Assembly: GCF_002943425.1 (NCBI RefSeq)
Contig: NZ_PTRA01000002.1
Span: 124,090-188,089, forward strand
DNA: 64,000 bases
Reading direction: 5' to 3'
From: Siphonobacter curvatus
Lineage (GTDB): Bacteria > Bacteroidota > Bacteroidia > Cytophagales > Spirosomataceae
Below the pieces are notes generated by a model that saw only the letters and a list, made by a program, of their open reading frames with translations, was not told where the DNA came from and made no database searches. The position numbers and the translations under genes were made by a program. Positions 14,855 through 49,790 of this stretch are shown here, one piece after another (within the stretch, counting starts at the first letter, position 1; every line of letters begins with the position of its first letter).

Positions 14855-15178
14855 GTTATTCACCTAGACTGAGTTTGGTCCTCCTTACTGGCTGTTCGGT
14901 AGCCCCTGAGCCTCTCCACGACTAACGACATCCTGCTCTAAGCCACCGCGTTGCGGCTGTCGTAGGTCGTTCCGTTGCTCAGGGGCGGGAGAGGTTTTCT
15001 TCTTGTAACTGTAATCTATTCAAGTTATTAGTTGGTGGTTAGTAGTTGTTAAAAGACAGCCGAAACCTTCATGGACGACTTAAATCCAGGCCCCGTCCTA
15101 TCGCGAAAAGCCGCCTACTTCCTCAGCAATGCGGTGGCTTTGAGCAAGAGGAAGTCAGCGGCGTTCGCGATACGGACT
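14855..15178 (-). repeat. Dispersed intergenic repeat, copy C (longest copy)
   Basis: Read on the minus strand it shares with the copy at 49546-49790: the block around GCTCA..GCCACCGCATTGCTGAGG (15147-15121), the block AACGACC..CGACAGCCGCAACGCGGT (14972-14942), GTCGTTA.GCGTGG-like sequence, and the terminus GGACCAAAC then CAGTCTAGGTGAATAAC (14881-14855). The inner stem CGAC-ta-ACGACA / TGTCGT-ag-GTCG encloses CCGC-gtt-GCGG. Copy-specific: two complementary pairs GCCCCTGAG/CTCAGGGGC (14902-14910, 14978-14986) and CCTCTCC/GGAGAGG (14911-14917, 14988-14994) in crossing order, and a 26-bp imperfect hairpin at 15095-15177. No coding capacity. It lies between divergent GH28 and SusC genes. Confidence 0.7.
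15095..15177. repeat. Long imperfect hairpin at the head of repeat copy C
   Basis: Paired arms: GTCC/GGAC, TATCGCGAA/TTCGCGATA, GCCGC/GCGGC and ACTTCCTC/GAGGAAGT with 1-2-base interruptions, 26 pairs in total, around a 23-nt loop (15125-15147) that carries the sequence conserved in copy B. Confidence 0.8.
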
Positions 15179-15495
15179 GAAAAACCAGCCGCCTCAGCGG
15201 GACGAAGTTGTGGTCCGGTAATCTAGCAAACTTCATTACGAAATGACCAATCGTCTCATCGGGACGAAAACAGCACTGTCCTTGAATAAAGTACTACGAT
15301 GGTTTTGAGCAGATGCTTAACCGCCTATATCTCACTTTGAACCATGCAGATCGTACTCAGACACAAAAAATTATTCTAAAAAAAAATTAATTTTTTACTG
15401 GATAAGTCACATGAATTACGTCTTGTGTATCGAAGGGTCTTTCGATCCCCACCTTCTCACCGTATTCCTAATACGACTTCAGAACTACGCTGATT

Positions 15496-18400
15496 ATGAA
15501 CAAACTCCTACCTACTCGCCGCAGGTTGTACGAATACCTGCTGGCTTGCACCATTGGTTTTTTCTTGTTGCTCGGCCTGACCGTTCAGGCTCAGACATCC
15601 AGGACCCTCACGGGTACCGTCACGGATGAAACGGGAGCCACCTTACCCGGCGTGAGCATTCTTCGAAAAGGCTCGCAGCAGGGAACGACTACCAACGAAG
15701 AGGGAAAGTATCGACTTACCTTTAGTGAAGAAGCAGCTACCCTCATTTTTTCTTACGTAGGCTATACACCGCAGGAAGTTGCTGTAGGAGCCGGATCGGT
15801 GTTGGACGTCGTATTAAAAGCCGATTCTAAAGCTCTTTCGGAAGTGGTCGTTGTGGGTTACGGCACCCAGAAAAAAGCGGAGGTAGCCACCGCTGTGGGC
15901 AGTATTGAAGGGAAAACCATTGCCGATCGAGGTACAGTAAGTCCGTTACAGGGGGCTCAGGGTCAGATTGCCGGGGTGGATATTTCCGCCGGATCGGGTC
16001 GGGCCGGAGCGAGTTATTCCGTGCAGATTCGGGGTCAGAACTCTTTGGCGGGTGGTCAGCCGCTGTACGTAGTTGATGGCGTTATTGTTCCCGATATCAA
16101 CTTTCTCAACCCGCAGGACATTGCCAAAATGGACGTATTGAAAGACGCCGCCTCAACGGCTATCTACGGTTCACGGGGTTCTAACGGGGTAATTCTGGTG
16201 ACGACCAAGGGCGGTTCAAGTGCCAAAGGTCGGACGACGATTTCCTATGACGGTTACGTGGGGATTCGGGAAGTGGCCCGGATGCCACACTTCATGAGCG
16301 GTCCCGAATGGTGGGAATATCGGCAAAACACCTTTATTTCTCCCGAACTCATTGCCGGACGTACCAACTATGACAACACCATCGGTAGCCTGGGAAACCC
16401 AGTGGTACAACAACGCGTAGCCAATGGAGATTATACTAACTGGCGAGATTTAGTTCTGCGGACGGGTACGCAAATGAACCATTGGCTAACCATTTCGGGA
16501 GCGAGTGAAAAGAATACAGTACAATATTTGATTGGTGCGGGTTATCAGAAAGAGAAAGGTAACCTTTTGCAGGAAGGCCTGGATCGCTACAACTTCAAAG
16601 CCAGCGTGGATGGTCGGATGAATGACCACTGGTCGGCCGGCATGAGCGTGAACTTCTCGCTTTCTGACATTGAGCGGGGTAGCGATGATGCCGTCCGGAA
16701 TGCCTTCAACATGGCTCCGATCTTCAGCCCCTACGATGCAAATGGTAATCTGATGTTCCGGCCCGGACAGATTCCAGTACCCAATTCCACGACCATTTCG
16801 AGCTTTACCAGTACAGTAAACCCTTTGCTGGAAATTCCGAATACAGAGAATAATACCCGCCGCTTGTTCGGAGTTGGAAATCTTTACTTGCAGTATGCGT
16901 TGAATGACTGGCTGGAATTACGTTCGACGTTTTCGCCGAGTGTAAATTTTGAGCGGAACGGTCGGTACTGGGGATCCCTGACCGGCGTAGGTGATGGTCT
17001 TTTACCCGATGCTCAGCGTTCCAACGCCCAGTCGCTTTCCTACATCTTCGACAACATTGCGACCATCCGTAAAAATTTTGGTGATCACCGCTTTACGTTC
17101 ACGGGTCTGTTCAGTATGCAGAAGGACCGCTTCGAAGGCGATGGACTACGAGTGAATGATCTGCCCTTTAACTCTTCGTACTACAACCTGGGTTCTTCCA
17201 CGAATCGTCAGTCGGGCACGAGTTACTTCCGGCAGGTGTCGATTCTTTCCTACATGGCCCGTGTGAATTACGTCTTCAAAGATCGCTACTTCGCGACGCT
17301 GGCTACCCGTTGGGATGGTTCCTCCAAGCTGGCTGAAGGGCACAAGTGGTCTACGTTCCCTTCACTAGCGGTGGGCTGGCAGTTGTCGGAAGAAAACTTC
17401 CTGAAATCAGCCAACTTCATTTCGGATTTGAAACTCCGCGTGAGTGCCGGTATTGCGGGAAACAACAACAATATTAGTGCGTACGAAAGCCAGATGAATC
17501 TGAGCGACCCTACCTTCTACGATTACGGCGGAACGGTTGCTCTGGGTTACGGTCCCAGCCGACTGCCCAACCCGGGCCTGACTTGGGAGCGTACCCGCGA
17601 GTTGGATTTTGGTCTGGACTACGGATTCTTTAATGGTCGGATTTCCGGTACGTTGGATGTCTACAACAAGCTTTCACGAGGTATTTTGATGAATCGTGAT
17701 ATTCCCATCGAAACGGGCTGGTCCTCAATTAAAGATAACGTAGGATCGGTACGGAATAAAGGCATCGAGTTCTCGTTACGGACCGTGAACGTCTCGACGA
17801 AAAACTTTACCTGGTCAACTTCCTTCAATTTCGCCCGGAACAAAAACGAGATTGTGGATCTGCTTGACAAGAAAGAAGATCTGGTAGGGAACTGGTGGTT
17901 TATCGGCCGACCCATCAACGTAAATTACACCTACGTGTTTGACGGCATCTGGCAGGAGAGCGAACGCGAACTGGCCGTTAAGTATGGCCAGTTACCGGGT
18001 CAGGCTCGCGTCAAGGATTTGAATAACGACGGCAAGATTAGTAGTGCGGACGACCGGGCCATCATTGGTCAGAAAGATCCCAAATGGACCGGAGGCTTTT
18101 CGACGCAGTTTACGTATAAAAACTTTGATCTGTCGGCCTCGATGTTTGCCCGCCAGGGAGCCCAGGTATACAGTGCCTTCCACAGCATTTTCCTGAACTA
18201 CTCCGATCGGGGTACGAACAAAATTTACGAAGACTACTACATGACCGATAATAAGGTGACGCCTTCCCGGGTGTCCAATACTTATCCCATGCCGAATAAC
18301 ATCGGCCCCTACTGGACGGGCGTATCCGGCGTCGGCTATTACAAAGATGTATCCTTTGTGAAAGTTCAGAATATCGTATTAGGCTACACGTTACCGACAA

Positions 18401-18615: not shown

Positions 18616-18621
18616 ACGACC

Positions 18622-20289: not shown

Positions 20290-20311
20290 ATTTGCTTTCA
20301 TGGATTCGAAC

Positions 20312-20368: not shown

Positions 20369-20436
20369 GTATCTTGCCACAAGAGGACAGCCGAACCGTA
20401 TAAAAGCATCAACACTAAACCATTCGTACAAAACAA

Positions 20437-22478: not shown

Positions 22479-25400
22479 ATGATTAAACAACTATTACTCT
22501 TTTCCTTTTTCACCGCTTCGGCCCTATTTTCGGTTTCTGCTCAGCAGAAACCTAGAGGGACGCTGGGTGTAATGAAGGAAAGTAGCCCGCCGCCTGCCGA
22601 GCAGGCCCAGGCTGCCCGTTGGTTGAAACAGAACCGTTCGGCTTTTACCGAAAACAAAGGTCAATTCCTGGACCAGTTCGGAAAGCCTAATGCTTCGGTC
22701 AGATACCTTCTAAATTTGCCGGGTTTAAACGTACAGCTCCGACAATCGGGTTTTAGTTATGATACTTACGCGGTAAAAGGTTCGGCTAAAAAGCTGGGTT
22801 TTCACCGGGTGGATGTTGAGCTGGTCGGAGCTAATCCCAAAGCTCAGCTTCGCACCGGGGCGGTGATGGCACCTTCCGTAAACGCGATTAATGGGAACGG
22901 AGCCTTTTCTAACATCCGTAGCTACGAGAAGGTGACCTATCAGGACATCTATCCGGACATTGACTTAGAGTTCGTGGCCCAAAAGGGTACTAACAAACCC
23001 ATTGAGTACAACTTCATTGTACGGCCAGGCGGCGATGCTTCTAAAATTCAGCTTCGCTACGAGGGAGCGAATGCCACGGCTCTAAAAAACGAGCGGGTGG
23101 TGATGAATCTCGTGCACGGTAAGCTTTCCGAGCGCATTCCAGCGAGTTGGATGAGTCAAAGCAAAAAGCCCGTCAGGGTGCACTACAGAGCTTTGGGCTC
23201 CGACATGTACGCGTTTAACGTACCCGCTTACGACAAAACCCAAACGCTGGTTATTGACCCGACACCCAATCTGGAGTGGGCCACTTACTATGGGGGAACG
23301 GGATTTGAAAGAATCTATGCAGTAGACATTGACTCTGAAGACAATATTTACGCGGTAGGGTACTCTGCAAGTACTGCTAACATTGCTAGTATAGGAGCAC
23401 CTCAAGGGAGTTTAATTGGAACAGATGATGGTTTTATCGCGAAATTTAACAGCAAGGGCCAACGACTTTGGGGAACATATTTCGGTGGGACTGGCACTGA
23501 CAGGATTCAAACTGTTAAGTTTCATAATGGTACTCTGTATATTGCTGGAACTACAGATAGCCCTAATTTAGGAACACCTGGAACCGAACAGCCTACTTAT
23601 AACGGCAAAGGATTTATAGCTACTGTAAACGCTACTACTGGACAAAAAAATTGGTTTACTTATGTAACTAATTCTACCGTCTTTCTTATGGAGTTTAAAC
23701 AAATTCTGATTGATCAAAGCGGAGCTTTGTATTTAGCAGGGTTTGTAGAAACCGGCATCGGAGCTACAACTAGTCCAGGAGAATTGGGAACGACTGGGAC
23801 CTTTCGTCCAACGACTGCTTCTGTTGGGCGTCCTTCTTTTTTGTTGAAATACAATGGAGCGACTGGCCGGAAAATTTGGGGAACGTATCTGGAGAATTTT
23901 TCCATGTATACTAGTATAGCTATGGATGCCGATGAAAGTATCTATGTAGCTGGTAGTTCACCAGGCTCAAGTACTGTGCCACAATGGTTAGCGTATACTA
24001 GCTTAGTAGGAGGAATTTCAGAGGGCCAAACCCGATACGAAGCTGATGGATATTTGTTGAAAATAAACCAAACAACTGGCCAGCGGATTTGGGGTCGTTA
24101 TTTTGGCGGTTCCCTCAACGACGATATTCGTGCTATTACTATTGATAAAGCCAAAGGTCGAATTTACGTGGGGGGGACGGCGGCAAGCACTACAGGCATA
24201 GCTTCTTCGGGGGCTTACCGCACCAATAAAGGAACTGCTACATCTGACGGCTTCTGGGCCAGCTTTGATCTGAATGGTAGCTTTCAGCAAGGTTCATATT
24301 TAGGAGCTCAATTGGGGGCTTTGACAAATGTAAGTAACATTCAACTTGATTTAGAAAGTAACCTGATTTTGGCAGGAACAACGAACACTACGACGGGTGA
24401 GCTTGCTAGTGAATGTACGTTTCAACCGATGCCTAAAGGCGGTACAGATCTCTTCCTAAACCATTTTAATATTACCTCAGGTCAACGCCTCTGGGGTACC
24501 TATTTTGGTTCATCAGTTAATGAAAATTTCGAAACGAATACTAGTTTGACGCTAAACTCTAAAGGTCATCTAGTATTAGGCTTTAGCGTTCAAGCAGGAA
24601 GCACGGGCCTAGCTACCCCTGGTTCGCACCAAACCAACCCAGGAGGTAACTTTGACGGCGTGATCGCCAAGTTTAACGGGGGCGAGTTGCCCTTGGACTT
24701 TGCCGTCACCCCTTCTACGGTGGCTCCCCTCACGCAAAATGCCTGCATTTTGGGCATTCCGGCCCTCGTTGAAGGCAACGCCGTCGGCGTCACTACTCCC
24801 AATCCCTACACCGGCAAGGTCTTCTACCAGTGGCAGAAGTCGGCTAGTGCTACGGGGCCCTGGGAAGATTTGCCGGGCGAAGTCTACAAGGACCTCCAGC
24901 CCCTGGCCTCCCAAACCACTTTGTACTACCGACGCCAGATCAAAGTCATCGCCGATTACTGTAACCTACAAGTCGTCGATACTTCTCCGGTTGCCTCGGT
25001 CATCATCGGCACCAATGCCGCCCCCATTGCTAGTGCCGACGGCCCCCAGTGGTTTGTATGCGGCAGCGGAGCTAACACTGTGACCTTAAACGGTTCAGCT
25101 ACCGGCGGAGCGGGTTCTTATACCTACCAGTGGTTTTCGGGCAGTACGTCCACCGGAACGTCCCTTTCGGCCACGGCGAGCTTGACTACCCCCGCCGTGA
25201 CCTCGGCCACCACCTACACCCTGCAAATCAAAGATGCCGCCGGCTGTACCGACATCGATCAGGTTACCATCGTACCCGCCGTGGCTAACGCGGGCGGCAA
25301 CAAGTCTTTTTGCCAGGGCAGCGGGGGCGTGCAGATCGGCACGGCTCCCGTCGCTAGCCCCTCGGTCACCTACGCCTGGAGTGTGGTTTCCGGGAGTGCC

Positions 25401-28400
25401 CTGAGTAGCTTAAGCTGCACCGACTGTGCCCAGCCCATTGCCACGCCGGCCGCCGTGACCACCTACCGCCTGACCGTGCGCGTCACCCAGAAAAATGGAG
25501 CGGTGTGCGCAACCACCAGCGATGTGACGGTAACCCCCGTGGCGGCTCCCAACAGCAATCCCACCGGCTTTGCTGGTTCCGATTACACGCTCTGTAAAAA
25601 CACCTCGCAGGTGTTGGGTAGTGCCACCGACGCTAGTTTTGCCTACACCTGGACCTCGGGCCAGTATCTGTCGGCTTCCCAGGTAGCCAAACCGACCTTT
25701 AATGCCGGAACGGCCGCTGTGACCAATGGCTTTATTGACTACACCGTCAATGCCGAAAAGAGCGGTTGCGTCTTTGTCGATCAGGTTCGCGTGTCGGTCT
25801 TAAACTACCGCATCACTGATCAAAACGAGACCCGCTGTGCTCCCCTGTGGTCTTCGCATCTAGACGAAGACAACGCCCCGGGCACTACGTATGCCTGGAG
25901 CGTAGTGAGCGGCACGGGTAGCGTGCTGCAAACCCGTAACAATGGCAAGGATGCTTACCTGCAAAGCACGAGTGGGGGGACCCGCTTCCGCCGCACGGTA
26001 AGCCTCAACGGCGTGAGCTGTACGGCTGACGTCTCGGTACAACCCTGTACGAACGGGGGAAATCTTTGTGACTTTGAGATCCTGACGCTTTCGGATCAGT
26101 CCTGCCCCAAAGTCTTCGGCGATGTGGCCCTCCGGCTGGGTACCAATATAACCAATCCGGCCGATGTGACCTATGCCTGGAGTCCGGCCAATCTGGTGGA
26201 TAATGCCTCGGCTTCCTCCGTGTTGATTACTGCCACGGCTCCGGCTACCATTACCCTGACCATTCGCAGTAAGTACGACGCGTCCATTACCTGCTCCAAG
26301 TCGATTGTGATCAACCCACCCGGCTGGTCCTTGCCCGTCTTTAATGCACCCAATGCCCATACCTGCCCGGGCACCCCCGTTCAGATTGGAAAGACGCCCC
26401 TTTCAGGCTTTACCTACGCCTGGACGCCAGCCGAAGGCCTTTCCAGCGTGACGGCCGCCAATCCAACGGCGACGGTCAGCTCGGCAAAAGAGTTTTACGT
26501 CACCATTACCGAAACGGCGACGGGTTGTCGCAACCGCGATACGGTACTCGTGAACGTTTCGGCTCCCGTAGCTGACGCCGGCAGAGACCGGGCCGTCTGT
26601 AACGGAGCCACCGTTACGCTGGGAACGCCCGCCCCCGCGGGTACTTCCTGGACCTACGCCTGGAGTCCCGCCAATGCCGCCTGGACCAACGGCACCACCG
26701 CTTCCTCGCCCCAACCTCAGGTGCAGTTTGCTTTCGCGACCCCCCAGACCTATACCTTGACGGTCACGGATCCCCAGTCAGGTTGTACGGCGACCGATCA
26801 GGTGGTGCTTCGCAATACCGTGCTGGCGGGTGAGTACGCCGGAGCCGCCCAGACTACCTGTCAGGGCGTACCCGTACAACTGGGAAGAGAGGCGGAACCC
26901 TTGGCTACCTACGAGTGGAGTCCGGCGGCGGGTTTAAGCTGCACTACGTGTGCCAGTCCTACGGTAACGAGTCCCACGGCGACCACGACCTACAGCGTGC
27001 GGGTGAGCTACCCCGGCTGTTCAACGCCCGTCACCGATCAGGTGACGGTAACCGTCAACCCCGTTTCGGGTCTTTCGCTGACCGACAAAACCCAGTGTTC
27101 GGGGGGCGTTCCCATCGGGTATGGCGCGGCCGGTAATCCCGCAGCTCCCAGTGGAGCCACCTACCTTTGGGCACCGGCTACGGGGCTGAGCTGCACTACG
27201 TGTGCGAACCCCACGGCTACCGTAGCCCAGCAGACGACTTACTCGGTTACCGTCACGCTTTCGAGTGGCTGTCAATTTACCGACGAAGTGGAAGTAACGC
27301 CGACGGCGGGAGCGGGCTCGCCCGTCACCCTTTGTCCGGGTGAATCCACCCAGATTGGAACGGCCGCTATCACCGGAGCTACCTATAGCTGGACGGGTGC
27401 GGGTATTGTGGGGGCTGCCAACGTAGCTCAGCCGACGGTCAAGCCCACCACGACGACGACCTACACGGTCACGGTGATTCTGAGCGGCTGCAGTTCAACA
27501 AGTCAGGTAACGGTAACGGTGAATACCCCTGCTGACTTTGCCATCACGGGCAACACGGCCCTCTGCCAGGGGGGAGCCACCACCTTAGCGCTAGTGGGCA
27601 CGCCGGCCGCTAACACGAGCTGGCAGTGGAGCCCGCTAACGGGGGTAGCGAGTCCCAACGCGACTGCGACGGTGATTACGCCATCAGCCACACAGACCTA
27701 CCGCTTAACGCAAACCAACCTAACGACGGGTTGTAGCAACTTTAAGGAAGTGGTCGTGGTGGTCAATCAAAACACGATTGCAGCGACCACGAGTGATCTG
27801 GCCGTTTGTGCAAGTTCGGCTACGCCGATGCCTTTGACGGTCACTTCTTCGGGCAGCTACACCTACGTCTGGTCGCCGGCAACGGGCCTTTCGAATCCTT
27901 TCGTAGCCCATCCGACCGTGACGACCGCTACGGCTCGCCTGTATACGGTGACCCTTACCGATAATACATCGAAGTGTCAGTTGGTACTCCCCGTAAACGT
28001 AACGCTTAATCCGATTGAAGCCTGCTATCCGCCGGTGACGCTTTCGGGTAACGTCTTTCACGATGCCAACGCGTTAACGGACGTGTCGGTGAATACCACC
28101 TCGAATCAGCCGATTCCTTCGAATCTATACGTCACGCTGGTAGATGGTACGGGTCAAGCCGTTAAAACGGTAGCGGTTGGCAGTAATGGTGCCTATGACT
28201 TTGGCGTAACTGCTCCGGGCAATTATAGCGTGGTGCTGCACCAGACGGCTGCGGGTTCCTCGACACCTAGTCTGCCTACGGGCTGGATCAATACGGGCGA
28301 GAACCTGGGAGCCGGCGTAGGCAGTGATGCGGCCGTTAATGGTATTCTGACCGGAATTACGGTAGCGAGTACCAACGTGACCAATGCCAACTTCGGCGTA

Positions 28401-31400
28401 CAACAACCGCCGGTCACCTCGGATAAAACCCTGCCTTCGCGGGTAAACCCGGGGGGCACCACGACGGTGGATCTTTCGAGTGCGTTTACCTACGCGGATG
28501 TCGATGGTACGCCTCAGACGATCACCTTTACGCAGTTTCCTAGCAATACAACGACCGTTACCATCAACGGTACGACCTACGTGCCGGCGGGACAGACGCC
28601 AGGCAGTGGTCAATCGGTATGGCCGGGGACGGTAACGGTTCCAGTAACGAATCTGAGTGTACTCATCGATCCCGTAGACGGAGCGGTTACTTCGCAGGTG
28701 CCGTTCTTAGTAACCGATAACGGCGGAGCTACCAGCAACACGAGCACGGTAACGGTGCCCTTCACGACGCCGACGGTACAACTCTCGGGCAATGTCTACC
28801 ATGATGCCAACGCGTTAACCGACAGCACAGTCAATACCACTTCGCAAGTAGCGATCCCAGGCGGCTTGTACGCGACGCTCGTCAACGCTTCCAATCAAGC
28901 GGTGGCTACGGTACCCGTAAATGCGGATGGTTCCTACAACTTTGGTAACGTTACGGCAGGTACGTACAGCGTCGTACTGCACCAGACGTCGACGGGTTCC
29001 ACAACTCCGGCTCTGCCGAGTGGTTGGATCAACACCGGTGAGCATCTGGGAGCAAACGCGGGTAGTGATGGCACAGTGAATGGTATTTTGCCGAACATCA
29101 CGGTCGCTACCACGGATGTAACGAATGTCAACTTCGGCGTCCAACAACCCCCCGTGACCTCGGACAAAACCCTGCCTTCGCGGGTGAATCCGGGTGGAAC
29201 GACGCCGGTGAATCTTTCGAGTGAGTTTACCTTCTCGGATGTCGATGGTACGCCTCAAACCATCACCTTCACGCAGTTCCCCTCAAGTGCGACGACCGTG
29301 ACGATTAACGGAACGACCTACGTCGCTCCGGGTCAAACGCCGGGAAGTGGACAGCAGGTATGGCCGGGTACGGTAACGGTTCCCGTGACGAATCTGAGTG
29401 TACTCGTGGATCCCGTAGACGGGGATGTCACCTCGCAGATTCCGTTCCTGGTAACGGATAACGGCGGAGCCAAGAGTAACACGAGCACGGTGACGGTTCC
29501 CTTTACCACGCCTCAGGTGACGCTTTCGGGCAATGTCTACCACGATGCCAACGGTTTGATGGATAACACCGTCAACACCACGTCCGCTCAGGCGATCCCA
29601 GGTGGCTTGTACGCCACGCTCGTTGATAGCACGGGTCAAGCGGTGAAAACGGTAGCGGTAGGTAGTAGTGGTGCTTATGACTTTGGTAGAGTAACTCCCG
29701 CAACCTACAGCGTCGTCTTGCACCAGACTCCGACGGGTTCAACCACGCCAAGTCTGCCTTCGGGTTGGATGAACACGGGTGAGCATTTGGGAGCCAGCGC
29801 GGGTAGTGACGGCACGGTCAACGGTATCTTACCGAACATCACCGTTACGACTACGGATGTCACCAACGCGAACTTTGGGGTGCAACAACCGCCGGTGACT
29901 TCGGATCAAACGCTGCCTTCGCGGGTGAATCCGGGGGGAACGACCACGGTGGATCTCTCCAGTGAATTTACCTTCTCCGACGTTGACGGTAGTGTCTCTT
30001 CGATTACCTTCACGCAGTTCCCAACGAACGTGACGACGGTAACGATTAACGGAACGACCTACGTACCCGAGGGACAAACACCCGCTGCGGGTCAGCAGGT
30101 CTGGCCGGGCACGGTAACCGTTCCAGTGACGAATCTTTCGGTCCTGGTGGATCCCGTAGACGGGGAGGTGACTTCGCAGGTACCGTTCTACGTAACCGAC
30201 AACGGCGGAGCTAAGAGTAACACGAGTACGGTGATGGTTCCCTTCACCACGCCTGTCGTTAGCCTAAGTGGTAACGTTTTCCACGATGCCAACGGTTTGA
30301 CGGATAACACGGTTAACAGTACGTCACAGGTAGCCATTCCGACGGGACTGTATGCGACGCTCGTCAATAGTACTGGTCAAGCGGTGAAAACAGCAACCGT
30401 AGCTTCAAACGGAGCTTACGACTTTGGGGTGACGCCAGCGGGTACGTATAGTGTCGTCTTGCATCAGACTCCGACGGGTTCGACGACGCCAAGTCTACCT
30501 TCGGGCTGGATCAACACGGGTGAGCATTTGGGAGCGAATGCGGGAAGCGACGGTACGGTGAACGGTATCCTGCCGAACATCACCGTCACGACGACGGATG
30601 TGACGAATGCGAACTTCGGCGTCCAGCAACCCCCCGTAGCTCAGCCCAAGGTCTATTTGATTGATGTACCGAGTCCGGGTACGAAGATCAAACTCGACAG
30701 CAGTCACGTTTCGACAGGTGTCGGAACGGCTGTGCCCGGTCAACTCACGGGCACCGATCCCGAGGATGGGGTCTTAAACGGAAGTAAGAAAGACCGCACC
30801 GTTACCATCACTACGCTACCTACCAACGGCCTACTCTGGTACGATGGCGTACGCGTAACCCCAGGTCAGGTGATTCAAAGCTACGATCCTTCGAAGCTGG
30901 AGCTTGAATTCACCGGTACGGGTTACACGTCGACGGTGTTTACCTACGCCTACCACGATGCGGCGGGCAGCGTGTCTGCACCCGTAACGTACGCCCTAAG
31001 CTGGGATAGTCCGCTGCCGGTACGTCTGACAAACTTCGATGCCAAAGTCAAAGGCCAGACCGTAGAACTTACTTGGGCCACGGCTCAGGAGCGAAACAGT
31101 CAGCATTTTGAAGTGCAACGGAGCCGCTCGGGTAACCCAGGCGAGTGGACGACCCTTCAGATCGTTTCGGCCAAAGGCCAGAGCACGACCAAACAAAGCT
31201 ACGCCTTTGTCGATCAGCAACCATTGGCTGGAGCGAGTCTGTACCGACTGAAAATGGTCGATCAGGATGGCAGTTTCGACTATAGCCGTAGCCGCTCGGT
31301 GAGCATGAAGGTTTCCTTCGAAACGAGCGTGTATCCTAACCCAGCTTCGGAGAAGGTATACCTCAAGGTGAGTGATCCGGCTCAGATTAAATCCGTTCGT

Positions 31401-31553
31401 CTGACGTCAGCCGTAGGAAATACGCTGTTGGAAATAAAGGGCTTACCGGAAAGTTCACTGGATGTGCAGGCGGTGCCTGCCGGCGTGTACCTGCTCAGCC
31501 TAGAGCATCAGGATGGTTCTACTTACAGCTACCGCGTGGTGATTGTCAAGTAA
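22479..31553 (+). CDS. Giant secreted multi-domain surface protein with T9SS sorting domain
   Basis: 3024 residues. Signal peptide 1-22. About 50-260: DUF7948-like domain (SAFTENKGQFLDQF ... YQDIYPDIDLEFVAQKG, ending LVIDPTPN). About 262-738: SBBP propeller repeats, each with WGTYFGG / ITIDKAKGRIYVGGTA-type strands. About 740-1850: a train of Ig/PKD-like modules, several marked by LSCTTCANPTATV-like strings with paired Cys. 1855-2720: three complete tandem repeats of exactly 247 residues and half a fourth (LSGNVxHDANxLxD ... NANFGVQQPP). About 2855 onward: PLPVRLTNFDAKVKGQTVELTW linker domain, then the type A C-terminal sorting domain from YPNPASEKVYL (~2951) to the VVIVK end. Such proteins are exported by the type IX system and attached to the surface; adhesion is the usual guess. 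One terminator follows. Confidence 0.9.
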   Translation: MIKQLLLFSFFTASALFSVSAQQKPRGTLGVMKESSPPPAEQAQAARWLKQNRSAFTENKGQFLDQFGKPNASVRYLLNLPGLNVQLRQSGFSYDTYAVKGSAKKLGFHRVDVELVGANPKAQLRTGAVMAPSVNAINGNGAFSNIRSYEKVTYQDIYPDIDLEFVAQKGTNKPIEYNFIVRPGGDASKIQLRYEGANATALKNERVVMNLVHGKLSERIPASWMSQSKKPVRVHYRALGSDMYAFNVPAYDKTQTLVIDPTPNLEWATYYGGTGFERIYAVDIDSEDNIYAVGYSASTANIASIGAPQGSLIGTDDGFIAKFNSKGQRLWGTYFGGTGTDRIQTVKFHNGTLYIAGTTDSPNLGTPGTEQPTYNGKGFIATVNATTGQKNWFTYVTNSTVFLMEFKQILIDQSGALYLAGFVETGIGATTSPGELGTTGTFRPTTASVGRPSFLLKYNGATGRKIWGTYLENFSMYTSIAMDADESIYVAGSSPGSSTVPQWLAYTSLVGGISEGQTRYEADGYLLKINQTTGQRIWGRYFGGSLNDDIRAITIDKAKGRIYVGGTAASTTGIASSGAYRTNKGTATSDGFWASFDLNGSFQQGSYLGAQLGALTNVSNIQLDLESNLILAGTTNTTTGELASECTFQPMPKGGTDLFLNHFNITSGQRLWGTYFGSSVNENFETNTSLTLNSKGHLVLGFSVQAGSTGLATPGSHQTNPGGNFDGVIAKFNGGELPLDFAVTPSTVAPLTQNACILGIPALVEGNAVGVTTPNPYTGKVFYQWQKSASATGPWEDLPGEVYKDLQPLASQTTLYYRRQIKVIADYCNLQVVDTSPVASVIIGTNAAPIASADGPQWFVCGSGANTVTLNGSATGGAGSYTYQWFSGSTSTGTSLSATASLTTPAVTSATTYTLQIKDAAGCTDIDQVTIVPAVANAGGNKSFCQGSGGVQIGTAPVASPSVTYAWSVVSGSALSSLSCTDCAQPIATPAAVTTYRLTVRVTQKNGAVCATTSDVTVTPVAAPNSNPTGFAGSDYTLCKNTSQVLGSATDASFAYTWTSGQYLSASQVAKPTFNAGTAAVTNGFIDYTVNAEKSGCVFVDQVRVSVLNYRITDQNETRCAPLWSSHLDEDNAPGTTYAWSVVSGTGSVLQTRNNGKDAYLQSTSGGTRFRRTVSLNGVSCTADVSVQPCTNGGNLCDFEILTLSDQSCPKVFGDVALRLGTNITNPADVTYAWSPANLVDNASASSVLITATAPATITLTIRSKYDASITCSKSIVINPPGWSLPVFNAPNAHTCPGTPVQIGKTPLSGFTYAWTPAEGLSSVTAANPTATVSSAKEFYVTITETATGCRNRDTVLVNVSAPVADAGRDRAVCNGATVTLGTPAPAGTSWTYAWSPANAAWTNGTTASSPQPQVQFAFATPQTYTLTVTDPQSGCTATDQVVLRNTVLAGEYAGAAQTTCQGVPVQLGREAEPLATYEWSPAAGLSCTTCASPTVTSPTATTTYSVRVSYPGCSTPVTDQVTVTVNPVSGLSLTDKTQCSGGVPIGYGAAGNPAAPSGATYLWAPATGLSCTTCANPTATVAQQTTYSVTVTLSSGCQFTDEVEVTPTAGAGSPVTLCPGESTQIGTAAITGATYSWTGAGIVGAANVAQPTVKPTTTTTYTVTVILSGCSSTSQVTVTVNTPADFAITGNTALCQGGATTLALVGTPAANTSWQWSPLTGVASPNATATVITPSATQTYRLTQTNLTTGCSNFKEVVVVVNQNTIAATTSDLAVCASSATPMPLTVTSSGSYTYVWSPATGLSNPFVAHPTVTTATARLYTVTLTDNTSKCQLVLPVNVTLNPIEACYPPVTLSGNVFHDANALTDVSVNTTSNQPIPSNLYVTLVDGTGQAVKTVAVGSNGAYDFGVTAPGNYSVVLHQTAAGSSTPSLPTGWINTGENLGAGVGSDAAVNGILTGITVASTNVTNANFGVQQPPVTSDKTLPSRVNPGGTTTVDLSSAFTYADVDGTPQTITFTQFPSNTTTVTINGTTYVPAGQTPGSGQSVWPGTVTVPVTNLSVLIDPVDGAVTSQVPFLVTDNGGATSNTSTVTVPFTTPTVQLSGNVYHDANALTDSTVNTTSQVAIPGGLYATLVNASNQAVATVPVNADGSYNFGNVTAGTYSVVLHQTSTGSTTPALPSGWINTGEHLGANAGSDGTVNGILPNITVATTDVTNVNFGVQQPPVTSDKTLPSRVNPGGTTPVNLSSEFTFSDVDGTPQTITFTQFPSSATTVTINGTTYVAPGQTPGSGQQVWPGTVTVPVTNLSVLVDPVDGDVTSQIPFLVTDNGGAKSNTSTVTVPFTTPQVTLSGNVYHDANGLMDNTVNTTSAQAIPGGLYATLVDSTGQAVKTVAVGSSGAYDFGRVTPATYSVVLHQTPTGSTTPSLPSGWMNTGEHLGASAGSDGTVNGILPNITVTTTDVTNANFGVQQPPVTSDQTLPSRVNPGGTTTVDLSSEFTFSDVDGSVSSITFTQFPTNVTTVTINGTTYVPEGQTPAAGQQVWPGTVTVPVTNLSVLVDPVDGEVTSQVPFYVTDNGGAKSNTSTVMVPFTTPVVSLSGNVFHDANGLTDNTVNSTSQVAIPTGLYATLVNSTGQAVKTATVASNGAYDFGVTPAGTYSVVLHQTPTGSTTPSLPSGWINTGEHLGANAGSDGTVNGILPNITVTTTDVTNANFGVQQPPVAQPKVYLIDVPSPGTKIKLDSSHVSTGVGTAVPGQLTGTDPEDGVLNGSKKDRTVTITTLPTNGLLWYDGVRVTPGQVIQSYDPSKLELEFTGTGYTSTVFTYAYHDAAGSVSAPVTYALSWDSPLPVRLTNFDAKVKGQTVELTWATAQERNSQHFEVQRSRSGNPGEWTTLQIVSAKGQSTTKQSYAFVDQQPLAGASLYRLKMVDQDGSFDYSRSRSVSMKVSFETSVYPNPASEKVYLKVSDPAQIKSVRLTSAVGNTLLEIKGLPESSLDVQAVPAGVYLLSLEHQDGSTYSYRVVIVK
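28041..30645 (+). repeat. In-gene tandem repeat, period 741 nt (247 aa), 3.5 units
   Basis: Unit starts at 28041, 28782, 29523 and 30264: the period is exactly 741 nt three times. The fourth unit stops after its first half at the NANFGVQQPP motif. Each unit has a B-like module (SGN-HDAN, then SVVLHQT, SGWINTGEHLGA) and a second module (TLPSRVNPGGTT, QTITFTQFP, WPGTVTVPVTNLSVL, TDNGGAKSNTST). Units differ by many synonymous changes, so they are not a very recent amplification. Confidence 0.95.
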
Positions 31554-38092: not shown

Positions 38093-38160
38093 GGTTTAGC
38101 TTTTCAGCTGTACGAAAAAAAGGATATCTAATAATAGATCAGTTTTTCGTCCCTTAAATG

Positions 38161-38336
38161 CGGCTGGTGATTTAGTCCATATACATTCCATGTCGGCACG
38201 CCCACCGCTCTTTTCATCCTGCTTCAGGCCACCATGGAATGGAAGGCGGCTTGAGCCCGGCATGCAATGCTGATATGCTACTAGCCAGCCGTGCCAACAG
38301 GACCAAACTCGATCTAGGTGAATAACGAAGCTCTAA
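38161..38336 (+). repeat. Dispersed intergenic repeat, copy A (internally deleted)
   Basis: Starts with CGGCTGGTGATTTAGTCC and shares with copy B the block CCATGYCGGCACGCCCACCGCTCTTTTCAT, in pieces 38189-38216, then GCCACCATGGAATGG, and the terminus ACAGGACCAAAC...ATCTAGGTGAATAACGAA (38298-38329). Copy B has an extra 20 bases bounded by GCCACC direct repeats and about 60 more bases in the central stem. Non-coding, between a small membrane-protein gene and an AraC gene facing it. The other parts of the 360-base gap hold only the hairpin noted for the upstream gene. Confidence 0.75.
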
Positions 38337-38452
38337 AAGAACTAAGTTTTCGATGGGAAGGTAGTCTACGAAGGCATGAAGGGCCAGCTAGCCGTCTCTA
38401 ATGAACGAAACTCAATTTCGTTTAAAGCAACCTAAATTAACAATCAATAACG

Positions 38453-47000: not shown

Positions 47001-47068
47001 CCCGCCAGGGCCGTCCAGGCAAAAAGAAGGTAAAACAGGAGCTTCCCTGGAAGTACTGATTTTCGCAT
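44024..47068 (-). CDS. SusC/RagA-family TonB-dependent outer-membrane porin (anmK-linked)
   Basis: 1014 residues. Signal peptide ending about residue 27 (GSVSAQ), CarboxypepD_reg domain (LQGKVSDASGSGLPFITV ... SGVGYKSQQKSF), LDEVVVTGTMG box, plug with PLYIVDGVIVNNDSR and AAAAAIYGSRANNGVVQIFTKKG, then the barrel ending in RSFLFGVSVNF with terminal Phe. It works with the downstream SusD. The 117-base gap to anmK contains a hairpin with T-run, so expression may partly uncouple from anmK. Confidence 0.93.
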   Translation of the reverse strand: MRKSVLPGKLLFYLLFAWTALAGSVSAQVQLQGKVSDASGSGLPFITVKLSSASTGTTTNASGTYQFTPSLKPGRYTLIFSGVGYKSQQKSFDVNASQNAVTLDATLEEDVLGLDEVVVTGTMGATSKRELGNSIATVGAKDLQFSAAPSLDAALQGKLSGAQITQNSGNPAGGISIRMRGPSTIVGSSDPLYIVDGVIVNNDSRQLIDLGGYSQNRLVDINPADIDRIEVIKGAAAAAIYGSRANNGVVQIFTKKGKEGKPSITFSTQFRVSQLRKKMAYNEYPFAFANTTPTDETQVPVTRYDYQDKIFQNAFGTENYLSLSGGTANTKYFVSGSNYYNQGIIKSTDFNRNGIRLRIQQKIGNKATISAGSNYVYSSSKEIPNGGISEAYGALTGFIFSNNSVNPEPDPVTGVYPSTAPVSVVRRTNPLEAINRFKFGQRTSRIISDFNFNLKPIEGLNIDYTVGIDNYTQSATAYIPPKNTTPTYDQGLARRADATVFQINNDLNVSYNTKVNDWLTSTSGIGGTIQYDRTLTFGATAQQLGAFGETINNGTIIATEFRSERSILGAFAQQSFGIKDRYFITGAARVDASSVYGIDNRWQFFPKVSGSYVLSNEKFWSEGALGRVVNSFKLRAAWGQSGNLTAIGAYDRFTNYSPVIYGGQTGYTSPAQFGNFTVKPERQTETEIGADFSLLNDRVSVEFSYFNKSVADLILNRTLAPTTGFNNRLINVGSMTNKGFEVMVKAVPVQTSRFRWITTLTYTSNKNTVNGVEGNGVLPFAGGFSQVAAVNGYPLGAYYSTFFARNPDGSLLLTAPTATNPNRYPQRERGTQLANGQYTVQRDANGQPTGTILSKVIGDPNPWGIVGFTNEFEIGKFNFRMQWDGMLGFEVFNFTRRVGERDLYASLKGYEPELRGDVPKGTSAALFSIFENYIEDGSFVKLREISASYVLTPKLWKMQNLRLTLIGRNLLSIDNYSGWDPETNAAGQDNAVRGFDFVEVPIPRSFLFGVSVNF

Positions 47069-47110
47069 ACGGTTAACTAGTTTGGAGTGTGTACTACTAA
47101 AAAAGGCAGG

Positions 47111-47147
47111 TCGTGGGAAAGCTGTAGCAGCCGCCCGCGTCCCACGA
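47111..47147 (-). terminator. Hairpin between anmK and SusC, possible partial terminator
   Basis: TCGTGGGA/TCCCACGA (47111-47118, 47140-47147) with inner GCTG-tag-CAGC; on the minus strand TTTTTT follows seven bases after the stem. The spacer makes it weaker than a standard terminator. Confidence 0.4.
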
Positions 47148-47185
47148 AAAACGTATTCAGGAAGTCGATTTAGAGGAGAAAACGA

Positions 47186-48391
47186 TTAATTCGGGAATGA
47201 AATCTTACCCATCGATACGCTGGGAACGCCCTGCCGATTGCCAAAGTGGGTCTTGCCACCCACCAGAGCTTCGTTGGCCAGAGTGGCAAATAGTACGGCT
47301 TCTTTCGCATCTCCCGAAATACCCAGTTCATCGGTCCGGCAAAGGGTCATTTCGGGCAAAAGCTCCTGGATATACTGCCAGAGTAAGGGGTTATGCATCC
47401 CGCCTCCGCTGGCGTACAATACCCAGGGTTGGGTAGTATCCCGGCTTTTCAGCGAACGGTGCACGGCTTCGGCAATGGTTTCCGCCGAAAATCGCGTAAG
47501 GGTCGCCAGTACGTCTTCAGGACTGAGGTCGGTACGCTGGATTTGTTGCTGAGCCGCCTCCAGATATGCCAGACTAAAGAGTTCTGGCCCCGTGGTTTTG
47601 GGAAAGGGTTTCTCAAAAAACGGGTTCTGCTTCAACGCGGCCAGTAAGGGTTCGTGTATCGTTCCCCGGCGGGCCAAAGCCGCATCTGCGTCGTAGGCTT
47701 TATTGAATTTCTGACGCGTATAGGCATCAAGCAGCGTATTGCCAGTGCCGGTATCGGTAGCGAATACTTCATCCGCATTCAGATTGGCCGGAAGGAAGGT
47801 AAAGTTGGCAATACCACCCAGATTCAGCAGAATTCGGTTTTCTCCCGCTTCCGAAAAAATCAGATAGTCGCCGTACACGGCCAGCGGAGCCCCTTCACCA
47901 CCCGCTGCACAATGTTTCTGCCGAAAATCGGACAGGGTAATAATGCCCGTAGTAACTGCCACGTGATCCCCATCGCCAATTTGTAGGGTAGCGTTGGGAA
48001 ACTGGTCCAGACCGTGCAGAATTCGGGGGGCGTGAAAGACCGTCTGTCCGTGACTGGCAATCACATCCACTTCCGCCGGAGCAATGCCCCAGCTTTCCAG
48101 ACAGTCGAGCACCAGCCGCCCGTGCAGGTTGCCAATCCAGGGATTCAGTACGCACAGGTGTTGGAAATCAATGGTTCGCTTGGCGAATACGGTTCGAATT
48201 TCCGCTTTAATTTCCTCGGTAAAATCTACCGTCCGAAACTCGCGTACGGTAACCTGCGTTTGTCCGCCTTCCCCCCGAAAAGTACAGAGGGCCACGTCCA
48301 GTCCATCCATCGAAGTACCCGACATCAAGCCAATGATGGTACGTTCAGGTTTCTGAGCAATCGTATATAGTTTCTGTATATGTGCGTTCAT
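47186..48391 (-). CDS. anmK: Anhydro-N-acetylmuramic acid kinase
   Basis: 401 residues, soluble. The ATP-binding opening IIGLMSGTSMDGLDVALC (residues 19-36) is diagnostic; later IASHGQTVFHAP, LNLGGIANFTFLP, ATDTGTGNTLLDAY and VLYASGGGMHNPLL match the family throughout. It opens the 1,6-anhydro ring of anhMurNAc and phosphorylates it to MurNAc-6-phosphate, a step in cell-wall recycling. Encoded 17 bases after a DeoR-type regulator and followed on the same strand by a SusC/SusD pair, suggesting control by a recycling sugar phosphate and linkage to uptake of wall fragments from outside. No murQ or permease is visible in the window. Confidence 0.95.
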   Translation of the reverse strand: MNAHIQKLYTIAQKPERTIIGLMSGTSMDGLDVALCTFRGEGGQTQVTVREFRTVDFTEEIKAEIRTVFAKRTIDFQHLCVLNPWIGNLHGRLVLDCLESWGIAPAEVDVIASHGQTVFHAPRILHGLDQFPNATLQIGDGDHVAVTTGIITLSDFRQKHCAAGGEGAPLAVYGDYLIFSEAGENRILLNLGGIANFTFLPANLNADEVFATDTGTGNTLLDAYTRQKFNKAYDADAALARRGTIHEPLLAALKQNPFFEKPFPKTTGPELFSLAYLEAAQQQIQRTDLSPEDVLATLTRFSAETIAEAVHRSLKSRDTTQPWVLYASGGGMHNPLLWQYIQELLPEMTLCRTDELGISGDAKEAVLFATLANEALVGGKTHFGNRQGVPSVSMGKISFPN

Positions 48392-48408
48392 GGTTCGTTT
48401 GGGGTGAA

Positions 48409-49170
48409 TTAAAGGGTTTTGACGCCGAGAGCGAGATACGGCTGCAGACTGGGATGGCTGGCGTCAAGTTCGGTAATCAGGTAATCAAGCGTGGTGACGG
48501 GGCATACCCGTAGTTTCATTGAGGTATTCAGTTTTTCGGCGATGGCCAGAATAGCAATAGTCTGAGCCGCCTTGAACATCGCCTTTTTGATCTCCACGGT
48601 TTCCCATTCCAGATCGGTAATCCCTTCCGTAGGGTCAATGGCATTCGTACCCATAATGCAAAGGTCGGCCCGAATATCGGCAAGCTTCAAAAACGCATCG
48701 CCACCTATTACGGTTTGACTATACGTTGATACTTTGCCACCAATCAAAATAGTTTCAAGGTTGGGCTTGTTCAGTAACGCAATGCAGGTATGCGGATTGA
48801 CCGTTACGAAGGTCGCCCGTAGCTGATCGGGTATGGCTTCGATGAAGGCCTGTACCGTTGTGCCGCCGCCGATGAGTACAATCATGCCGTCCCTCACAAG
48901 GGATACTGCTTTTCGGGCGATCCGCTCTTTGCTGGAGGAGGCGTATCGCAATGATTTTTCGCTTTGGGGACTGAAGTGATTGCCCGCCGCCATGGCTCCG
49001 CCCTTGATTTTAATGATGAGCCGCTCGTCAGACAGTTCATTTAGGTCACGGCGAATGGTCTCCTCGGATACATGGAGTAGTTGAGACAAGTCACCGAACG
49101 TAACCCGGGAGTGGATGTTGACGTGTTTAAGTATAAGTTCTTTTCGCTCTTTTTTGACCAGCGTAATCAT
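48409..49170 (-). CDS. DeoR-family transcriptional regulator
   Basis: 253 residues. N-terminal winged HTH of DeoR type (RVTFGDLSQLLHVSEETIRRDLNEL, about 23-47) followed by the DeoRC sugar-phosphate sensor: RIARKAVSLVRDGMIVLIGGGTTVQAFIEAIP, VTVNPHTCIALL, LETILIGGKVSTYSQTVIGGDA, LCIMGTNAIDPTEGITDLEWE. These usually respond to a phosphorylated sugar. First gene of the anmK-SusCD group, so MurNAc-6-P or a related amino-sugar phosphate is a likely signal (inference). Confidence 0.92.
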   Translation of the reverse strand: MITLVKKERKELILKHVNIHSRVTFGDLSQLLHVSEETIRRDLNELSDERLIIKIKGGAMAAGNHFSPQSEKSLRYASSSKERIARKAVSLVRDGMIVLIGGGTTVQAFIEAIPDQLRATFVTVNPHTCIALLNKPNLETILIGGKVSTYSQTVIGGDAFLKLADIRADLCIMGTNAIDPTEGITDLEWETVEIKKAMFKAAQTIAILAIAEKLNTSMKLRVCPVTTLDYLITELDASHPSLQPYLALGVKTL

Positions 49171-49545
49171 AGCTATTGCCCAGTAATCTGTCTCTCTCGC
49201 CTAATCATCTTTACAAATATTAAAAATAATTGTCAATGTTTGGCTGGTAATTAAATATTATTTGGAAATAGTGAAAAAAACTAATTAAATGCATTGTGTT
49301 TGTTTTAAATTATGATATTTAATTCTAAAATATTTAATAAATTAAAGGTGATATTTATATAAATAGGGTACTTTAATTTAAGTATTTGATTATTAAATTG
49401 TATAAAATAAATAAATAATATATATTTTTGAGATAGTGAAAAATTTTGGAGTTGGATAGGGTATGCGTTTCGTTTGTGTAATGGATATACTAGTAAAGTA
49501 TCGGTTCTTTTTTAGAAGAACAAGACTGTTTCCGGCACGTAAGTA
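49171..49545. other. Very AT-rich non-coding stretch upstream of the DeoR gene
   Basis: Positions about 49200-49440 are among the most AT-rich in the window and hold no gene. AAATATTTAATA-type palindromes occur around 49317-49340. Probably the DeoR/anmK promoter region; on the minus strand AATATTTG (49221-49214) is one base from the -7 consensus, without a well-placed TTG. Confidence 0.4.
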
Positions 49546-49790
49546 CGGCTGATTTTTAGTCCCTATGCATCCCATGCCGGCACGCCCACCGCTCTTTTCA
49601 TTTTGCTCAGGGCCACCGCATTGCTGAGGGAGCCACCATGGAATGGCAACTGAACGACCTGCGACAGCCGCAACGCGGTAGCCAAAAGCGAGCTGTCGTT
49701 AAGCGTGGGGAGGTCCAGCCTGGAAGGCTTACGGGCTAACAGCCGTATTTACAGGACCAAACCCAGTCTAGGTGAATAACGAAACGCTAA
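49546..49790 (+). repeat. Dispersed intergenic repeat, copy B
   Basis: Begins CGGCTGATTTTTAGTCC like copy A; then ATGCCGGCACGCCCACCGC, TTGCTCAGGGCCACCGCATTGCTGAGG as in copy C, GCCACCATGGAATGG as in A, the stem CGACAGC/GCTGTCG around CCGC-aac-GCGG as in C, and the terminus ACAGGACCAAAC then CAGTCTAGGTGAATAAC shared by all. It is therefore the copy that links A and C. Between the divergent DeoR and enolase-superfamily genes; no coding capacity. Confidence 0.78.

What the first reader, a model, noticed from the sequence alone, without database searches (positions are those of the whole stretch)
14855..49790. Undescribed dispersed intergenic repeat family, three copies in 64 kb
Copies at 14855-15178 (minus), 38161-38336 (plus) and 49546-49790 (plus) share a terminus of about 27 bases, GGACCAAAC followed by CAGTCTAGGTGAATAAC in two copies and CGATCTAGG in the third, plus inner blocks (CGGCACGCCCACCGCTC; GCCACCGCATTGCTGAGG; CGACAGCCGCAACGCGGT). 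Copies differ in length (176-324 bases) and are hairpin-rich without coding capacity. They lie in divergent and convergent gaps alike, so they are not ordinary promoter or terminator parts. The picture fits a REP/MITE-like mobile element or a family of structured RNAs.
Basis: seen in the sequence. Interest (0 to 1): 0.75.

Follow-up and report, generated by a model that had tools for sequence, protein, structure and literature searches.

The report
Hairpin repeat family with 14-base modules
Scattered between the genes of this Siphonobacter-type bacterium are dozens of copies of a long, two-halved DNA hairpin that sits at shared places in a sister species but whose stems are rebuilt, mostly in steps of 14 bases, a new variant of the palindromic repeats known from other bacteria.

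Summary
TCTAGGTGAATAAC occurs exactly 16 times in the genome (3 in the window; reversed control 0); 46 of 50 own-genome loci picked by repeat hits carry the repeat. Full elements are inverted dimers of one hairpin unit: D2 and the reverse complement of D1 share a loop, GCAAYGCGGTGGCCTARAGCRGG, on stems of differing but complementary sequence. All 39 unit pairs within 600 nt run minus-then-plus. Domain lengths go in steps of 14 nt, by reading mostly mini-hairpins such as CCATGGAATGG. The family appears in 2 of 6 genomes of the genus searched; an exact scan of 84,980 species found only Siphonobacter sp. BAB-5405. There all three window sites are occupied, but interiors differ: 14-nt steps and paired stem replacement (A), inversion (B), deletion (C). 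No transposase partner, clean empty site or target duplication was found, within limited searches. Best reading: an old REPIN/BIME-like palindrome family, probably not transposing now, remodelled by template switching or slippage and exchange between copies. An RNA role is not excluded. New variant of a known kind.

The parts
14855..15206 (-). Site A, core element: inner left end, domain D1, AT-rich middle, domain D2, right end
   Evidence: DNA fold of 14855-15210 z -4.60
15233..15268 (-). Site A, outer left end (TTCGTCCCGATGAGACG...), second copy of the terminal sequence about 60 nt outside the inner one; its inward limit is approximate
   Evidence: sequence; end-pattern hit with 3 mismatches C2:139336-139357
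15173..15206 (-). Site A, inner left terminal sequence TTCGTCCCGCTGAGGCGGCTGG...AGTCC
   Evidence: end-pattern hit with 1 mismatch C2:139274-139295
15095..15178 (-). Site A, domain D1, 84-nt base form without modules; its reverse complement carries the unit loop (model R1 hit 15112-15163 +)
   Evidence: R1 68.5 bits
14899..14994 (-). Site A, domain D2, 96-nt base form; unit loop in the forward sense of the element (model R1 hit 14917-14968 -)
   Evidence: R1 69.3 bits
14855..14881 (-). Site A, right end GGACCAAACTCAGTCTAGGTGAATAAC
14786..14810 (-). Site A, possible degenerate outer right end (AGACTAATAGTCGGTCGTAGTGATG)
   Evidence: by eye against outer ends of other copies; weak
38146..38326 (+). 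Site B, degenerate core: left end, D1 with a module, right end; D2 not recognised
   Evidence: end-pattern hit with 3 mismatches 38146-38167; R1 hit 38203-38248 (-), 24.5 bits, E 0.002; fold z -0.99
38385..38411 (+). Site B, outer right end (CAGCTAGCCGTCTCTAATGAACGAAAC)
   Evidence: by eye against the terminal sequence
49528..49780 (+). Site C, core, lacking about 150 nt of interior relative to the sister genome
   Evidence: R1 hits 49587-49631 (-) and 49656-49707 (+); fold z -0.91
49754..49780 (+). Site C, right end GGACCAAACCCAGTCTAGGTGAATAAC

Best explanation
An old family of composite palindromic DNA repeats. Shown: full elements are inverted dimers of a hairpin unit with a conserved loop and differing, complementary stems, bounded by imperfect inverted ends and lying between genes; domain lengths change mostly in 14-nt steps; positions are shared with a sister species while many interiors differ. 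Inferred: the family spread before the two lineages split, by an unidentified or lost transposition machinery, as is proposed for REPINs; it is now mostly fixed in place. Hairpins exposed as single strands in replication are remodelled by slippage and template switching (adding and removing 14-nt modules, keeping arms complementary, inverting interiors), and copies exchange segments by homologous recombination. Its effect on the cell, if any, is most likely at DNA level (cruciform or topology, protein binding) or as a stem-loop in transcripts that cross it; neither was tested.
For: Copies. Inverted dimer: shared loop, 39 of 39 unit pairs within 600 nt minus-then-plus. Stem covariation: on 51 cores pre-selected for complementary arms, 95.0% of cells paired against 72.0% shuffled and 126 double-changed cells against 47.3, 0 of 500 shuffles as high; without that selection, 124 loop matches inside the repeat give 79.1% inner-helix cells paired against 56.4% (highest 61.7% of 500) when whole arms are dealt out anew. 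14-nt step: Rayleigh R 0.68 for 54 of 63 D1 and 0.92 for 27 of 30 D2 sequences (the others fall outside the length limits), period 14 best of 7-20 (copies are related, so P values are nominal). In 19 orthologous domain comparisons 17 length differences lie within 1 of a multiple of 14; of the 12 that exceed 1 nt, 10 do. Modules: 111 mini-hairpins in 43 own copies, neighbouring spacing exactly 14 in 29 cases; on 384 kb of own contig 2, 12 inside elements (3.2 per kb) and 110 outside (0.29 per kb). Shared sites with differing interiors. No G.T excess over A.C in stems.
Against: RNA folding energy is lower on the unit strand in 43 of 46 (D1) and 24 of 27 (D2) sequences, still in 41 of 44 and 25 of 27 with the loop replaced and in 38 of 46 and 20 of 27 with GU disallowed, as an RNA role would predict. 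The conserved loop is unexplained by a purely mutational account. Arm types match in only 34 of 48 classifiable D1 domains, so arms are not strictly changed together. Two of 11 orthologous D1 differences (36 and 17) do not fit 14-nt steps. At the 215-kb site interiors correspond and are not remodelled. The original mobility is inferred only.
Confidence: 0.5

Rival explanations
1. A family of structured RNAs (cis-acting stem-loops or small RNAs): the unit folds as RNA, its loop binds a protein or another RNA, and stem sequence is free to vary if pairing is kept.
For: Covariation with a conserved loop; unit strand folds better as RNA in 43 of 46 and 24 of 27; somewhat more GU pairs in folds of the unit strand (148 of 1837 against 110 of 1753; 82 of 1006 against 61 of 1013).
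Against: The two units of an element lie on opposite strands, so no transcript carries both in the same sense; stem mismatches G.T 58 and A.C 54, 57 and 52, though 9 and 4 in the pre-selected inner helix; no Rfam match; no clear orientation or gap preference relative to genes (26 tandem, 12 convergent, 8 divergent of 46; background 68, 21, 27). No positive control with a known RNA was run for the mismatch test.
Confidence: 0.2
2. An active miniature transposon (MITE) moved in trans by a transposase that recognises the TTCGTCCCGC... ends.
For: Imperfect inverted ends, 40 and 41 end-pattern matches in two genomes; intergenic, both strands; differing arrangement at one shared site (site B); one G060 copy at 316 kb whose place holds different DNA in G000.
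Against: No facing ends 1-3 kb apart among the ends listed for G000 and G060 (read); no Y1 transposase (PF01797) in G000; three in G060, none with the repeat in the 3-5 kb fetched around each; no TnpB zinc-ribbon domain in G000; shared sites and no clean empty site. Other transposase families were not searched.
Confidence: 0.15
3. Chromosome-organising binding sites: the conserved loop or the 14-nt modules bind a nucleoid protein, gyrase or a partition factor, as reported for E. coli BIMEs (recalled).
For: Conserved loop and repeated 14-nt modules at dispersed, positionally shared sites.
Against: Not found in four other genomes of the genus, so not an essential organiser of the genus; several copies are decayed.
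Confidence: 0.13

Closest known systems
REPIN / BIME (REP doublets; Bertels and Rainey 2011, PMC3116915, abstract seen)
   Same: Dispersed, extragenic, inverted doublets with a spacer that can fold as a hairpin
   Different: The domains here are 84 nt and more instead of a 20-40 bp REP, with a long conserved loop and 14-nt modules; no associated RAYT found
CGTC-tagged REPs (Di Nocera et al. 2013, PMC3733652; abstract, sections 6 and 14 and passages seen)
   Same: Terminal CGTC motif (here TTCGTCC), dimers, no dedicated transposase; reported also from Bacteroidetes
   Different: CGTC REPs have 8-9 bp stems and 4-5 nt loops with a short tail, mostly CCA; that hairpin was not recognised at the ends here (by eye only)
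Other composite intergenic elements (BOX, ERIC; recalled, no call)
   Same: Intergenic, variable in length through internal segments
   Different: No series of 14-nt mini-hairpins or unit loop of this kind is known to me; not compared by tool
Template-switch remodelled hairpins (Monttinen and Loytynoja 2022, PMC8794818, abstract and opening seen)
   Same: Multibase compensatory stem changes explained by replication template switching
   Different: Described there for RNA genes; here an intergenic repeat family with stepwise modules

Membership tests
REP / BIME / REPIN | Extragenic, many copies per genome | tested here: met
   Of 46 own places 41 overlap no called ORF; 4 overlap an ORF of about 93-112 aa and L030 overlaps a neighbouring ORF by 27 nt
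REP / BIME / REPIN | Inverted doublets of a palindromic unit | tested here: met
   39 of 39 unit pairs within 600 nt minus-then-plus; 26 of 54 and 21 of 71 units single at this threshold
REP / BIME / REPIN | Unit of 20-40 bp | tested here: not met
   D1 base form 84 nt, D2 96 nt, growing by 14
REP / BIME / REPIN | RAYT (Y1 tyrosine transposase) flanked by the repeat | tested here: not met
   0 matches of PF01797 in G000; 3 in G060, repeat not found in the stretch fetched around any of the 3
REP / BIME / REPIN | GTAG or CGTC unpaired tag | tested here: inconclusive
   Ends read TTCGTCC and contain CGTC; whether it is unpaired next to a REP hairpin was not shown
MITE | Terminal inverted repeats | tested here: met
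   Left end TTCGTCCCGC... with its inverse (GGGACGAA) at the other side in some copies, the variant right end in others; imperfect
MITE | Target site duplication / empty site | tested here: inconclusive
   Orthologous sites compared are occupied or carry remnants, except the 316-kb G060 place, where G000 has different DNA; four other congeners too distant for empty sites
MITE | Autonomous partner with the same ends | tested here: inconclusive
   None seen among the ends; only PF01797, PF07282 and PF14239 searched, PF14239 with a silent control
Structured RNA family | Covarying helices | tested here: met
   the count of pairs with a change on both sides (8) is not above shuffles (mean 7.1, 126 of 500 reach it), the other measures are
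Structured RNA family | Strand asymmetry from G-U pairs | tested here: inconclusive
   58 G.T and 54 A.C, 57 and 52; folding energy favours the unit strand
Structured RNA family | Match to a described RNA family | tested here: not met
   No Rfam match at gathering score over the window; on loci L001, L002, L008, L009 and L010 at E<=10 one hit, outside the repeat, 21 bits against a gathering score of 55
Structured RNA family | Transcription | not testable with these tools
   no RNA-seq
TnpB / IscB guide RNA (omega RNA) | TnpB or IscB gene in the genome | tested here: inconclusive
   No PF07282 in G000 (control rings in 6 of 14); no PF14239 but its control rang nowhere

The most novel reading that the evidence does not exclude
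A self-remodelling hairpin system: fixed chromosomal sites whose stems are exchanged as 14-nt modules and paired cassettes among dozens of copies by a dedicated process (an enzyme acting on the conserved loop), so that the elements diversify in concert while their positions stay put.
Probability: 0.1. Interest if true: 0.8.

Novelty: new variant of a known kind. Interest (0 to 1): 0.5.

Why it matters
It gives a natural series of long palindromes at the same chromosomal places in two species, with interiors that differ mostly by countable 14-nt steps and by replaced stem pairs. That makes it a test bed for how bacterial palindromes are kept, corrected and exchanged (template switching, slippage, gene conversion), and for telling DNA-level from RNA-level causes of stem covariation: here stems covary though their mismatches show no G-U excess.

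Tried and rejected
Rejected or unsupported: HEARO/omega RNA idea (no Rfam match, no TnpB zinc ribbon in G000); RAYT-driven REPIN; a pseudoknot between CCTCTCC and GGAGAGG in D2, considered and dropped because that pair did not seem to covary (by eye; not counted); plasmid or phage origin (no BLASTN match of the site-A element in either collection; one 17-mer in a viral contig matches the repeat over 16-18 bases only); weak model match in G398 of another family (28.4 bits) without BLAST support at E<=0.001; single 14-mer hits in G009, G030 and G073 show no repeat around them (by eye). A first strand-energy test used loose extraction with chance sequences, gave a weaker and partly different picture (D2 65 of 112) and is superseded. 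Looking for empty sites in other congeners failed: matches there are 63-78% alike and scattered, and seven stretches fetched there hold only chance-like matches (12-28 nt, E>=0.004). A terminator and promoter scan at site B found none, where shuffles average 1.0 and 0.6, so it says nothing.

Limits: model searches scored 29, 20 or 150 candidates per genome, so unit counts are lower bounds. Own loci were chosen by repeat hits, and so were the G060 loci, so only the contig comparison bears on occupancy. The 51 cores of alignment A1 are 51 of 64 listed, which had been filtered for complementary arms (148 of 340 loop-pattern hits passed); I left out one chance match and 12 others, mostly with a module in one arm. 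One search, made for this reason, uses no stem filter. The 44 units had to reach an arm-alignment score; failures were not counted. ORF calling is mechanical. Of 31 locus pairs given to, 11 had D1 and 8 had D2 extracted on both sides.
Full report
Observation. The three copies are real. TCTAGGTGAATAAC lies exactly at 14855-14868 (-), 38313-38326 (+) and 49767-49780 (+); with up to three mismatches the window has 11 matches where 100 shuffles average 4.42 and none reaches 11. The window belongs to a 6.39-Mb genome (G000), in which the 14-mer occurs 16 times, 8 on each strand, with none for the reversed control. One copy used as a BLASTN query gives 62 matches at E<=0.001. Of 50 own-genome loci, picked because of such hits and compared with each other, 46 carry a central repeated segment; L065, L077 and L078 do not and L073 is doubtful.

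Anatomy. Read in the orientation of the right end, a full element has a left end TTCGTCCCGCNNANACGGCTGG...AGTCC, a first domain D1 (AGTCC...GGAC), an AT-rich middle of about 100 nt, a second domain D2 (CCTCTCCCGCC...GGGCTAC), and a right end CAGCC...GGACCAAACYCRGTCTAGGTGAATAAC. Many copies have a second, outer end sequence some tens of nt further out on one or both sides, some have the left-type end on both sides, and in some the interior is inverted relative to the right end; this was read by eye. D2 and the reverse complement of D1 share a loop, GCAAYGCGGTGGCCTARAGCRGG, so the element is an inverted dimer of one hairpin unit. A covariance model of 51 unit cores (R1) finds at least 54 units in G000 and 71 in the sister genome G060 at E<=0.01 (150 candidates scored in each). 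Within 600 nt these form 14 and 25 pairs, all 39 minus-then-plus, with 26 and 21 units left single.

Structure. On the 51-core alignment (2 helices, 11 pairs) 95.0% of cells pair against 72.0% in shuffles, 126 cells change on both sides against 47.3, and the covariation score is 0.580 against 0.194, with 0 of 500 shuffles as high in these three; the number of pairs with a double change (8) is not above shuffles (7.1; 126 of 500 reach it), and further pair types are 20 against 16.6 (7 of 500). Sliding the partners by 1 to 3 columns gives 33-67% pairing. These cores had been pre-selected for complementary arms and mix the D1 and D2 classes, both of which raise the figures. Without selection on arms, 124 distinct loop matches (up to 4 mismatches) inside repeat intervals give 758 of 958 inner-helix cells paired (79.1%), against a mean of 56.4% and a maximum of 61.7% when whole 3' arms are dealt out anew 500 times; 93 of 124 units have 6 to 8 of 8 positions paired and 31 have 5 or fewer. 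The stems vary as whole sequences (for example ACGACAG/CTGTCGT, TTTCATCC/GGATGAAA, ACTTCCTC/GAGGAAGT) around a loop that varies much less.

Steps of 14. D1 and D2 lengths cluster near 84 plus 14n and 96 plus 14n. Of periods 7 to 20, period 14 fits best for 54 of 63 D1 (R 0.68) and 27 of 30 D2 sequences (R 0.92), the others being outside the length limits set; copies are related, so the nominal P values overstate the case. Better evidence comes from orthologous domains in G000 and G060: of 19 comparisons (11 D1, 8 D2), 17 length differences are within 1 nt of a multiple of 14, and of the 12 that exceed 1 nt, 10 are; the two exceptions are 36 and 17. By reading, the added pieces are largely mini-hairpins with arms such as CCAT/ATGG and GCAT/ATGC; 111 of them were counted in 43 own copies, 72 with loop TCC or GGA, and 29 neighbouring pairs are spaced by exactly 14, the commonest spacing. 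On 384 kb of own contig 2 there are 12 such mini-hairpins in 3.7 kb of elements (3.2 per kb) and 110 elsewhere (0.29 per kb). In 48 D1 domains where both arms could be classed, both arms have the same type in 34 and differ in 14 (Fisher P 0.009); 6 further domains could not be classed.

Comparison with the sister genome. Own contig 2 (44-428 kb) was compared with G060 contig 163 (105-437 kb). Of 11 own places, six mapped on both flanks and were called occupied (at 88.7, 138.9, 162.2, 173.6, 206.0 and 215.2 kb; the first is weak, with 7 library hits on the own and 1 on the G060 side), a seventh at 425 kb is occupied on inspection, one at 387 kb is weak and mapped on one side, and three lay outside aligned parts; of 8 G060 places one at 316 kb has different DNA in G000 instead. 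At site A the two elements are nearly identical outside the modules, yet both arms of the outer D1 stem differ together and four gaps of 14, 14, 13 and 14 nt, besides single-base gaps, separate them; at site B the G060 copy is longer and inverted; at site C the own copy lacks about 150 nt. At the 206-kb site flanks and ends match while D1 and D2 interiors are of other types; at 215 kb the interiors correspond. At two other sites (L018/L111, L042/L115) G060 keeps only an end remnant. In 8 of 11 D1 and 5 of 8 D2 comparisons a paralogue in the own genome is more alike than the orthologue, with one tie; identity was scaled to the longer sequence, so length differences weigh in.

Distribution. In 200 genomes of the family, only G000 and G060 have more than one exact 14-mer; three have a single hit with no repeat around it. 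The left-end pattern with up to 3 mismatches gives 40 and 41 matches in G000 and G060 (reversed control 1 and 3) and 0 to 7 in four other congeners (control 0 to 5). Model R1 matches 2 of 200 family genomes and, of 291 in the order, G000 and one weak match in G398. An exact scan of 84,980 species genomes for an 18-mer right end returns five stretches, all from BAB-5405 (the window's own genome may be left out, and diverged right ends would be missed). Plasmid and phage collections have no BLASTN match to the site-A element.

Context. Of 46 copies, 41 overlap no called ORF, 4 overlap an ORF of about 93-112 aa and one overlaps a neighbour by 27 nt. Gap types are 26 tandem, 12 convergent and 8 divergent, against 68, 21 and 27 for gaps of at least 100 nt on the fetched pieces of contig 2, so there is no clear preference. 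Neighbours of the three window copies include a GH28 glycoside hydrolase and a TonB-dependent receptor (A), an AraC-type regulator (B), and a DeoR regulator with an enolase-like protein (C).

DNA or RNA. A symmetric arm alignment of 44 units counts 58 G.T and 54 A.C stem mismatches; the unfiltered 124 units give 57 and 52. An RNA under selection should favour G.T; no known RNA was run as positive control. Against this, RNA folding energy is lower on the unit strand in 43 of 46 D1 and 24 of 27 D2 sequences; base-shuffled copies explain part of this for D1 (mean -2.5 kcal/mol, 40 sequences) but not for D2 (+0.6). The difference persists with the loop replaced (41 of 44 and 25 of 27) and shrinks but persists with GU pairs disallowed (38 of 46 and 20 of 27). 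In the pre-selected inner helix there are 9 G.T and 4 A.C. I therefore leave the RNA question open and lean to DNA, because the two units of an element lie on opposite strands and the gap types show no fixed relation to genes.

Mobility. No Y1 transposase is found in G000; G060 has three, none with the repeat in the 3-5 kb fetched around it. No TnpB zinc ribbon is present in G000; the IscB search is uninformative because its control rang nowhere. No pair of facing ends 1-3 kb apart is listed. A pair of units 3 kb apart in G060 is two separate elements flanking what read as efflux genes. I infer an old spread and later fixation.

Verdict. A REPIN/BIME-like composite palindrome family, restricted as far as searched to one branch of Siphonobacter, distinguished by unit size, a conserved loop and stepwise 14-nt stems. 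It is not filed as a REP/RAYT family, because unit size and RAYT association were tested and not met. The odds given here did not change with the check that added. Literature: PMC3733652 (abstract, sections 6 and 14, passages), PMC8794818 and PMC3116915 (abstracts, for the first also the opening), PMC12306157 and PMC2267715 (passages), other titles from listings only.

Noticed in passing
window 22479-31553 (+): A 3024-aa protein with DUF7948 near the N-terminus, an SdrD_B-like match and a Por secretion tail, containing tandem repeats of 741 bp (62-85% to the reference copies).
   Followed up: partly
window 12711-12758: 21-nt inverted repeat (95% complementary, 6-nt spacer) just beyond the 3' end of the GH28 gene 12792-14426 (-), perhaps its terminator.
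   Followed up: no
window 14700-15400 against G060:C163:377150-377980: The intergenic region around site A looks more conserved between the two genomes (few differences outside the modules, by eye) than the surroundings (91% over 8.4 kb); possible recent exchange or constraint.
   Followed up: partly
G398:C237:332017-332064: A single weak match to the unit model (28.4 bits, E 1.1e-4) in a genome of another family of the order; no BLAST similarity to the repeat.
   Followed up: partly
L156 (G060:C189:14000-20000): Two separate copies of the repeat flank an efflux-type gene pair (HlyD-like and TolC-like by reading the translation) about 3 kb apart.
   Followed up: partly
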